Source: an uncultured Clostridia bacterium
GTDB lineage: Bacteria > Bacillota > Clostridia > Lachnospirales > CAG-274
Length of the DNA: 64,000 nucleotides
NCBI GenBank assembly: GCA_949948985.1
Contig: CATLIG010000004.1
Location: forward strand, 1-64,000
Direction: 5' to 3'
Below are positions 38,586 to 60,483 of the stretch, in pieces; position 1 is the first letter of the stretch, and each line of letters opens with the position of its first letter. The position numbers and the translations under genes are program-made. The notes under the pieces were generated by a model that was given only the letters and a program-made list of their open reading frames with translations, was not told the DNA's origin and searched no databases.

Positions 38586-39914
38586 TTACTTCTTTTTTTT
38601 CATAGCCATAACAGCTCTTTTGGTTACTCTTATAGATTGGGCAAGATGTCTTTTAGCGGGACAGACATAAGAACACGAACCGCATTCAATACAATCAAGA
38701 CCATGATTTTTATCAAACGCCTCATAATCGTTTGCGAGTACATCGCCATTAAGCTCAAGAGGCATAAGACCCATAGGACAAACACCAACACATTTCCCAC
38801 AGCGAATACAGTTACTTTCCTCCGGAAGTTCAGCCTCTTCTTTTGTAAGACATAAAATAGCCGAAGATGTCTTTATTAAAGGCACGTCAAGAGAATATAA
38901 AGCCACACCCATCATAGGTCCGCCTGAAATAACCTTTGCTGGTTCTTCTTTAAATCCGCCTGTCATTTCAATAAGTTCTCTGAAACTCATACCAAGACGA
39001 ACCTGATAATTTCCCGGATTTTTAACAGCTCCTCCTGTAAGGGTAATAATTCTTCTCATAAGAGGTCTATCTTTTACAACAGCTCTTTCAATAGCAAGAA
39101 TTGTATCTACATTGTCAACAATACATCCAACATCTGCGGGAAGCTTTCCTGACGGAACTTCTCTCTTTGTAACAGCGTAAATTAATTGTTTTTCAGAACC
39201 CTGGGGATACTTTTTCTGTAAAGTAACAACAGAGATATTTGATATGCCGTTAGCCGCACGTGTAAGAGCCTCAATGGCGTCAGGTTTATTGTTTTCAATA
39301 GCTATATACCCATGTGCGTTGGGATGTATTTTAAGTACTATTTCAAGTCCTTTAACAACTCTGTCAGTTTTTTCAAGAAGAACACGATGGTCGGTTGTAA
39401 GATAAGGCTCGCATTCAGCGGCATTTACAATTATCGAATCAATTTTCTTATCAGGCCCGGGATTTAATTTTATATGAGTCGGAAATCCTGCGCCTCCAAG
39501 ACCAACAATACCAGCGTTATGAACTTTTTCAATAATTTTTTCCTTTGAAAAATTCTTATAGTCAGTATCTTTTCCAAGAGAAGGATCTTCTTCATATTTT
39601 CCGTCATTAGTAATTATAATCGCGTTTGACATAGCACCGCCTGGTGTAAGCACCTGTTTTATTTCTTTGACCACACCAGAAACCGAGGAATGAATAGGTG
39701 CTGATACAAACGCTTGGCTTTCAGCAATTTTCTGACCAAGAAGAACTCTGTCGCCTTTTGAAACAATAGGTTCACATGGAGCACCTATATGCTGACTCAT
39801 AGGCACAACAATATCAGCGCCTTCTTTCGGCATTAAAATTTCAATAGGCTTTTTGTTTGTAAGCTCTTTTGAATCAGGTGGATGAACGCCGCGTTTAAAA
39901 GTTAATGCTTTCAT
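38586..39914 (-). CDS. rnfC: Rnf complex subunit RnfC (iron-sulfur)
   Basis: Soluble NAD-reducing subunit, 442 residues. N-terminal barrel (FKRGVHPPDSKELT), NADH/FMN-binding core (VGLGGAGFPTHIKL, IIVNAAECEPYLTTDHRVLLE, SGGPMMGVAL), and two [4Fe-4S] clusters CIRCGKCVGVCPMGL and CIECGSCSYVCPAKR near the C-terminus. First gene of rnfCDGEAB, the usual clostridial order; GGAGG precedes ATG. The complex couples ferredoxin oxidation to NAD+ reduction and Na+/H+ export. Confidence 0.97.
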   Translation of the reverse strand: MKALTFKRGVHPPDSKELTNKKPIEILMPKEGADIVVPMSQHIGAPCEPIVSKGDRVLLGQKIAESQAFVSAPIHSSVSGVVKEIKQVLTPGGAMSNAIIITNDGKYEEDPSLGKDTDYKNFSKEKIIEKVHNAGIVGLGGAGFPTHIKLNPGPDKKIDSIIVNAAECEPYLTTDHRVLLEKTDRVVKGLEIVLKIHPNAHGYIAIENNKPDAIEALTRAANGISNISVVTLQKKYPQGSEKQLIYAVTKREVPSGKLPADVGCIVDNVDTILAIERAVVKDRPLMRRIITLTGGAVKNPGNYQVRLGMSFRELIEMTGGFKEEPAKVISGGPMMGVALYSLDVPLIKTSSAILCLTKEEAELPEESNCIRCGKCVGVCPMGLMPLELNGDVLANDYEAFDKNHGLDCIECGSCSYVCPAKRHLAQSIRVTKRAVMAMKKKK

Positions 39915-59502: not shown

Positions 59503-59925
59503 TTATTGTTCGGCTTTTTTAATTGCTTTAGGAACAAAATTCTTACTTTTCCAGTAGCTTTCTTTACTCTTTATCCACATATAAGTAATAATTACACATA
59601 AAATTCCAAAAATAAATCCAACAAGCTCATTATATCCGATATTAATTAATTTTGTAACAAATATGCCTATAACAGTTCCTATAATCAAAGATAAGAACGG
59701 CAGACCGTACATAATCAATACGGCAGTAATAAAATTTGCTTCCTCAAGCACAATTTCAACAGTATCACCAACAGTAGCGTCACATTGATTATAAGCCTTT
59801 ATAATCATTTCTTCTGACCGCATACCCACACTGCAAGCCCTGCACTTTGCGCAGGCCTCTTTCCTTTGAAGTTTAACAACAACTTTGTTATTATCAATAT
59901 CTATAACACAACCTGTTTCAGCCAT
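59503..59925 (-). CDS. RseC/SoxR-reducing-system-type membrane protein
   Basis: 140 residues of the RseC_MucC family: MAETGCVIDIDNNKVVVKLQRKEACAKCRACSVG (Cys motif CxxCxxC), VGDTVEIVLEEANFITAVLIMYGLPFLSLIIGTVIG and a second membrane helix, then a basic tail. Members accompany Rnf/Rsx systems and may keep their iron-sulfur parts or SoxR reduced. Here it is 20 kb from rnfCDGEAB. It lies just downstream of the RNA candidate at 59958-60141 and may share its promoter. Confidence 0.9.
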   Translation of the reverse strand: MAETGCVIDIDNNKVVVKLQRKEACAKCRACSVGMRSEEMIIKAYNQCDATVGDTVEIVLEEANFITAVLIMYGLPFLSLIIGTVIGIFVTKLINIGYNELVGFIFGILCVIITYMWIKSKESYWKSKNFVPKAIKKAEQ

Positions 59926-59957: not shown

Positions 59958-60141
59958 AAAAGGACTCTGCCGAGCCGGCTATCAATAAGGCTTAAAACCT
60001 TAAAACAAGGTGGTTGTAGCACTTTACGCTTCCTTGTTTTGCATACAATGTGCAACCTACAAATCCACATAAAGAAAACTATTATCCCGTAGAAATCGTG
60101 TTGGTTATAAACAATCAAAGATTCGTACTCGGAAGAGTTAC
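59958..60141 (-). ncRNA. Candidate structured non-coding RNA (about 180 nt) with H-type pseudoknot
   Basis: Minus-strand RNA expected to begin near 60140 from a near-consensus promoter. Its ends pair: ACTCTTCCGAG (60138-60128) with CTCGGCAGAGT (59974-59964), one mismatch. Inside, GCAC, TGTA and GTGG (60050-60068) pair with CCAC, TACA and GTGC (60010-60022) in one helix. Loop bases AAAACAAG (60040-60033) pair with CTTGTTTT (60009-60002) just 3' of it, making a pseudoknot. A small AAGG/CCTT hairpin follows (59987-60001). G+C is clearly higher than the surroundings. The 68-codon frame across it has no ribosome site. Size and style fit 6S RNA or the clostridial raiA-motif RNA; I cannot decide. 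Confidence 0.65.
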
Positions 60142-60145
60142 TATT

Positions 60146-60174
60146 ATTATACATAATAATTAAAAAAAAAGCAA
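60146..60174 (-). promoter_or_regulatory. Promoter of the structured RNA
   Basis: TTGCTT, 17-base spacer, TATAAT on the minus strand, 5-7 bases before the first base of the closing helix. Confidence 0.75.
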
Positions 60175-60207: not shown

Positions 60208-60483
60208 TCAACACGCAGAATATCTTTCAAATTCCTCAAAATCTTGTCTTTTCACAATATTTCTTTTATTTTCAATAATATATTTTTTTACTGGGAGAAA
60301 ATCCTCAATAATACAAACAGCGCAGTAACAGCCAAATGTAATTAAAATAAAAGGCATGGTACATACAATCATAATATTAAAATCTGTCTGTAATATCCAG
60401 CAAATAATAAAATTAATAAAAAATATTATAATACCAAAAAAACTTATTTTCTTCAATAATAAAAATAAAGAATAAACTTTCAT
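60208..60483 (-). CDS. Small membrane protein (91 aa), hypothetical
   Basis: Two membrane helices (ISFFGIIIFFINFIICWIL and MIVCTMPFILITFGCYCAVCII) followed by a basic/acidic cytosolic tail ending ERYSAC. Not recognised. GGGGGAGG lies just before ATG. It directs towards the RNA candidate on the same strand, 67 bases ahead. Confidence 0.65.
   Translation of the reverse strand: MKVYSLFLLLKKISFFGIIIFFINFIICWILQTDFNIMIVCTMPFILITFGCYCAVCIIEDFLPVKKYIIENKRNIVKRQDFEEFERYSAC

What the first reader, a model, noticed from the sequence alone, without database searches (positions are those of the whole stretch)
59958..60141. Promoter-driven structured RNA with closed terminal helix and H-type pseudoknot
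Seen: TTGCTT-17-TATAAT ends 5-7 bases before an 11-position closing helix (60138-60128 with 59974-59964, one mismatch). Inside, a three-segment helix (60050-60068 with 60010-60022) and an 8-bp helix between its loop (60033-60040) and the bases just 3' of it (60002-60009) form an H-type pseudoknot. The region is richer in G+C than its AT-rich setting and codes for nothing. Known: 6S RNA and the clostridial raiA-motif RNA have about this size; I cannot tell by eye whether this is either or something new. It reads toward rseC.
Basis: partly seen in the sequence, partly recalled or inferred. Interest (0 to 1): 0.72.

Follow-up and report, generated by a model that had tools for sequence, protein, structure and literature searches.

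The report
Second 6S RNA beside rseC
The structured RNA is a 6S RNA, the well-known bacterial RNA that imitates an open promoter and ties up RNA polymerase; it is the less common of two kinds in this genome, sits just before the gene rseC, and contains no pseudoknot.

Summary
Window 59960-60141 (-) matches Rfam RF00013 (6S/SsrS) end to end above the curated cut-off (49.5 v. 46.4 bits). The genome has one other, better-scoring 6S gene (67.8 bits). The H-type pseudoknot and three-segment helix are not supported: across 28 homologues they pair no better than shuffled columns (34% and 56% of cells), while the 6S rod pairs in 93% with 29 of 35 pairs doubly changed. The pseudoknot's strands belong to an apical stem and to the 3' central-bubble hairpin. 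A pRNA template is present (predicted pRNA 5'-GUUGGUUAUAAACAA). This copy belongs to a 6S clade (support 99) found in 11 of 392 genomes sampled from the order, with rseC just downstream or nearby in 8, and related to the aspS/tcdA/rarA-linked 6S genes of other Bacillota; the order's common 6S forms another clade (support 100). Three clade members escape the Rfam genome search. New member of a known kind; the rseC linkage and the two 6S lineages are modestly interesting.

The parts
59960..60141 (-). 6S RNA (RF00013), whole match
   Evidence: 49.5 bits, gathering 46.4, model 1-187
60146..60174 (-). promoter TTGCTT-17-TATAAT; alternative TTTACC-18-TATTAT at 60182-60153
   Evidence: sequence; scan; conserved in ten relatives
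60124..60138 (-). closing stem, 5' strand (pairs with 59964-59977)
   Evidence: 91.6-94.2% of cells paired, compensated changes
59964..59977 (-). closing stem, 3' strand
60103..60112 (-). helix P2, 5' strand (pairs with 59990-59999)
   Evidence: 93.9% of cells paired
59990..59999 (-). helix P2, 3' strand
60100..60114 (-). predicted pRNA template UUGUUUAUAACCAAC, start at 60100
   Evidence: alignment to other 6S RNAs; published hallmarks; inferred
59997..60011 (-). 3' central-bubble hairpin ACCUU-GUUUU-AAGGU, shares bases with P2
   Evidence: 95.7% of cells paired
60012..60088 (-). apical arm: stems 60074-60067/60029-60022, 60062-60059/60037-60034, 60055-60051/60043-60039
   Evidence: nearly every pair doubly changed across homologues
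59503..59925 (-). rseC, 34 bases downstream of the RNA
   Evidence: PF04246, 101 bits
59456..59483 (-). intrinsic terminator after rseC
   Evidence: 10-bp stem, then T-rich tail

Best explanation
The element is a 6S RNA gene. [quoted passage not shown] When nucleotides return, polymerase copies the 5' central bubble and the 5' strand of P2 into a short pRNA (predicted 5'-GUUGGUUAUAAACAA). This opens P2 and frees its 3' strand to complete the hairpin ACCUU-GUUUU-AAGGU, and the RNA is released. The copy belongs to a 6S clade distinct from the order's common 6S; it now mostly lies before rseC, which probably depends at least partly on read-through from the 6S promoter. Shown here: family match, structure by covariation, a second 6S gene in the genome, the clade and its neighbours. 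Inferred: transcription, polymerase binding, pRNA synthesis, release switch, read-through.
For: Full-length RF00013 match over the gathering score; rod supported by covariation in a model-fitted alignment and a sequence-only one, P2 and bubble hairpin; template and pRNA hallmarks with mechanism from PMC8876501; clade and synteny; no promoter found between RNA and rseC and a terminator only after rseC.
Against: The Rfam score is only 3 bits over the cut-off and the -35 is weak. No expression data. Alignment A3 was fitted to the model. P2 and the bubble hairpin are nearly invariant, so covariation speaks less for them. Relatives carry a U tract at the RNA's 3' end, which argues against strong read-through. 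A rseC promoter of non-sigma-A type was not looked for.
Confidence: 0.95

Rival explanations
1. A new structured RNA built round an H-type pseudoknot, not a 6S RNA.
For: The 8-bp complement is present in the window, and G011 keeps six of its pairs with one double change.
Against: Full-length 6S match; pseudoknot paired in 34.0% of cells against 34.4% in shuffles and in 50.6% against 46.0% among the 11 nearest; its strands are used by covarying stems.
Confidence: 0.02
2. A decaying 6S copy that is no longer made or no longer binds polymerase.
For: Lower score than the genome's other 6S; frayed outer end of the closing stem and weak -35; not found in the three other genomes of the genus.
Against: All stems, bubble and template are intact, and changes against the nearest relatives are compensated.
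Confidence: 0.06
3. A cis-acting leader of rseC (riboswitch-like or attenuator) that has only borrowed the 6S fold.
For: It lies 34 bases before rseC, in 8 of 11 clade members rseC is near, and the U tract could end transcription.
Against: The conserved parts are those of 6S RNA, template included; L068 and L070 have other genes downstream and L072 has tcdA in between.
Confidence: 0.04

Closest known systems
6S / SsrS RNA (Rfam RF00013), including B. subtilis 6S-1 and E. coli ssrS
   Same: Length, rod with central bubble, template region, P2, 3' bubble hairpin; two copies per genome as in B. subtilis and some clostridia (PMC8414754).
   Different: Low Rfam score; CUACAACCACCU in place of the usual ACCCACCU; lies before rseC; the hairpin shares bases with P2, as in the E. 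coli type rather than the B. subtilis 6S-1 type described in PMC8876501.
ssrS-ygfA operon of gamma-proteobacteria
   Same: 6S RNA followed closely by a protein gene on the same strand, co-transcribed in E. coli (PMC2848244).
   Different: The partner here is rseC, and co-transcription is only inferred.
raiA-motif RNA
   Same: Similar size and occurrence in clostridia (recalled, not tested).
   Different: No Rfam match at E up to 1.

Membership tests
6S RNA (RF00013) | Match to the curated covariance model over the gathering score | tested here: met
   49.5 bits against 46.4, model 1-187
6S RNA (RF00013) | Closing stem and apical arm flanking a central bubble | tested here: met
   Covariation on 28 and on 11 homologues
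6S RNA (RF00013) | Template for pRNA with GG at 4/5 or 5/6 and an A beside the start | tested here: met
   Predicted GUUGGUUAUAAACAA, next template base A; hallmarks from PMC8414754
6S RNA (RF00013) | Binding to housekeeping RNA polymerase and pRNA synthesis | not testable with these tools
   Needs in vitro binding and transcription
6S RNA (RF00013) | Expression as a stable RNA of about 190 nt | not testable with these tools
   No RNA data at hand; conserved promoter only
raiA-motif RNA | Match to its Rfam model | tested here: not met
   Only RF00013 matches at E up to 1
H-type pseudoknot RNA | Both helices kept by compensating changes | tested here: not met

The most novel reading that the evidence does not exclude
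The order keeps two long-separated 6S RNAs: a common one, and a rarer one that forms a dicistronic unit with rseC, so that a polymerase regulator and the regulator of the RNF energy complex (an rnfC gene lies 20 kb away in the same window) are made together.
Probability: 0.3. Interest if true: 0.45.

Novelty: new member of a known kind. Interest (0 to 1): 0.27.

Why it matters
It settles what the RNA is, shows that an eye-found pseudoknot is spurious, and points to a divergent 6S clade of which 3 of 11 members escape the Rfam genome search. If the 6S-rseC unit is real, it parallels the unexplained ssrS-ygfA operon with another partner gene and could link polymerase control to ferredoxin-driven energy conservation, since deleting rseC in Clostridium ljungdahlii lowers rnf transcription (PMC9124969).

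Tried and rejected
Pseudoknot and three-segment helix. raiA motif. Phage records: no match. Single-sequence fold energy as evidence: uninformative. Three weak R1 matches (L073-L075) were set aside because they carry the AACCTACA template of the common clade. Opposite-strand matches in L063, L064 and L122 were left out as reflections of the rod's self-complementarity. A first tree run failed on a thread setting and was repeated.

Full report
Identity. A scan of the whole window with all Rfam models gives three matches: two tRNAs, and RF00013 (6S/SsrS) at 59960-60141 on the minus strand, 49.5 bits against a gathering score of 46.4, covering the model from end to end. A permissive scan of 501 bases gives this single match, E 5.4e-9. 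The genome holds one more 6S gene, on another contig, at 67.8 bits, and no third at E up to 1.

Observation. Closing helix, promoter hexamers, G+C contrast and direction toward rseC are as described. The -35 is weak and an overlapping hexamer pair lies 7 bases further upstream. In ten clade relatives a promoter with 9-12 of 12 matches ends 10-15 bases before the corresponding position, so the start in the window is uncertain by about 7 bases.

Structure. The copies just before rseC in the window, G005 and G011 were aligned (A1). A rod drawn by hand pairs in 96.6% of cells with 10 doubly changed pairs. A model built from these three (R1) found homologues elsewhere, joined by those of a pattern scan. 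On 28 homologues the rod pairs in 92.8% of cells and 29 of 35 pairs are doubly changed. That alignment was fitted to the model, so the test was repeated on a sequence-only alignment of the 11 nearest: 87.6% and 19 doubly changed pairs, reached by no shuffle. P2 pairs in 93.9% of cells and the 3' bubble hairpin in 95.7%; the two share bases, as in a switch. The three-segment helix gives 56.0% against 54.5% and 64.8% against 64.2%. About one fifth of shuffled versions of this RNA contain a perfect 8-bp complement.

Mechanism. Published work describes promoter mimicry, pRNA synthesis from the 5' bubble and P2, opening of P2, and in E. coli a hairpin formed by the 3' bubble with the freed 3' strand of P2 (PMC8876501). 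The window RNA has each element: template UUGUUUAUAACCAAC giving pRNA 5'-GUUGGUUAUAAACAA, with GG at 4/5 and an A beside the start, hallmarks listed in PMC8414754; and the hairpin ACCUU-GUUUU-AAGGU sharing three bases with P2. The genome's other 6S would give 5'-GUAGGUUCAAAAUA. Function is inferred from these matches, not shown.

Clade and neighbours. R1 finds 14 of 392 genomes sampled from the order; 11 carry the AACCAACA template and the other three are weak matches of the common type. A tree of 57 6S sequences separates the 11 (support 99) from the order's common 6S (support 100) and places them among 6S genes next to aspS, tcdA and rarA in other Bacillota. The tree rests on about 190 columns, and the members were found with a model of their own type, so the grouping should be taken with care. 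PMC8414754 reports rarA close to B. subtilis 6S-1, which suggests, but does not show, that this clade descends from that locus. In G030 the order is aspS, a membrane protein, 6S, tcdA, rseC, a plausible intermediate. rseC lies downstream within the fetched stretch in 8 of 11; in L068 and L070 it does not, and L067 is cut by the contig end. Six of the 11 genomes have both kinds of 6S and in five only the rare kind was found (G035, G065, G151, G165, G231), some of them incomplete. In G035, G082 and G151 the RF00013 genome search missed the rare copy. Contig names of clade members (Defluviitaleaceae, Lachnospiraceae, uncultured Eubacteriaceae) suggest the order Lachnospirales; this is inference.

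Link to rseC. The RNA ends 34 bases before rseC. The scan shows no usable promoter between them (the one match overlaps the start codon) and a strong terminator only after rseC, so read-through from the 6S promoter is the simplest source of rseC mRNA. This is not shown, and relatives have U tracts at the RNA's 3' end. E. coli 6S is co-transcribed with ygfA (PMC2848244). Deleting rseC represses rnf genes in C. ljungdahlii (PMC9124969), and an RnfC domain lies at 39597-39902 of this window.

Verdict. A 6S RNA: a new member, ordinary in kind. The interest lies in the second lineage and its partner gene.

Noticed in passing
window 39597-39902 (-): RnfC N-terminal domain (PF13375, 133 bits), the only one in the genome, about 20 kb from rseC.
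   Followed up: partly
L118 1184-4005; also L117: aspS, 6S RNA, 5-formyltetrahydrofolate cyclo-ligase in this order in Bacillota: the same 6S-ygfA neighbourhood known from gamma-proteobacteria.
   Followed up: partly
L065, L066, L069: 6S RNAs scoring 103-131 bits with model R1 that the RF00013 genome search does not report.
   Followed up: partly
L066, between the 6S RNA and rseC: A 312-codon frame resembling a PD-(D/E)XK transposase-family protein (by eye) lies between 6S and rseC.
   Followed up: no
window 60208-60483 (-): A 91-aa hydrophobic protein upstream of the 6S gene has no Pfam match.
   Followed up: no
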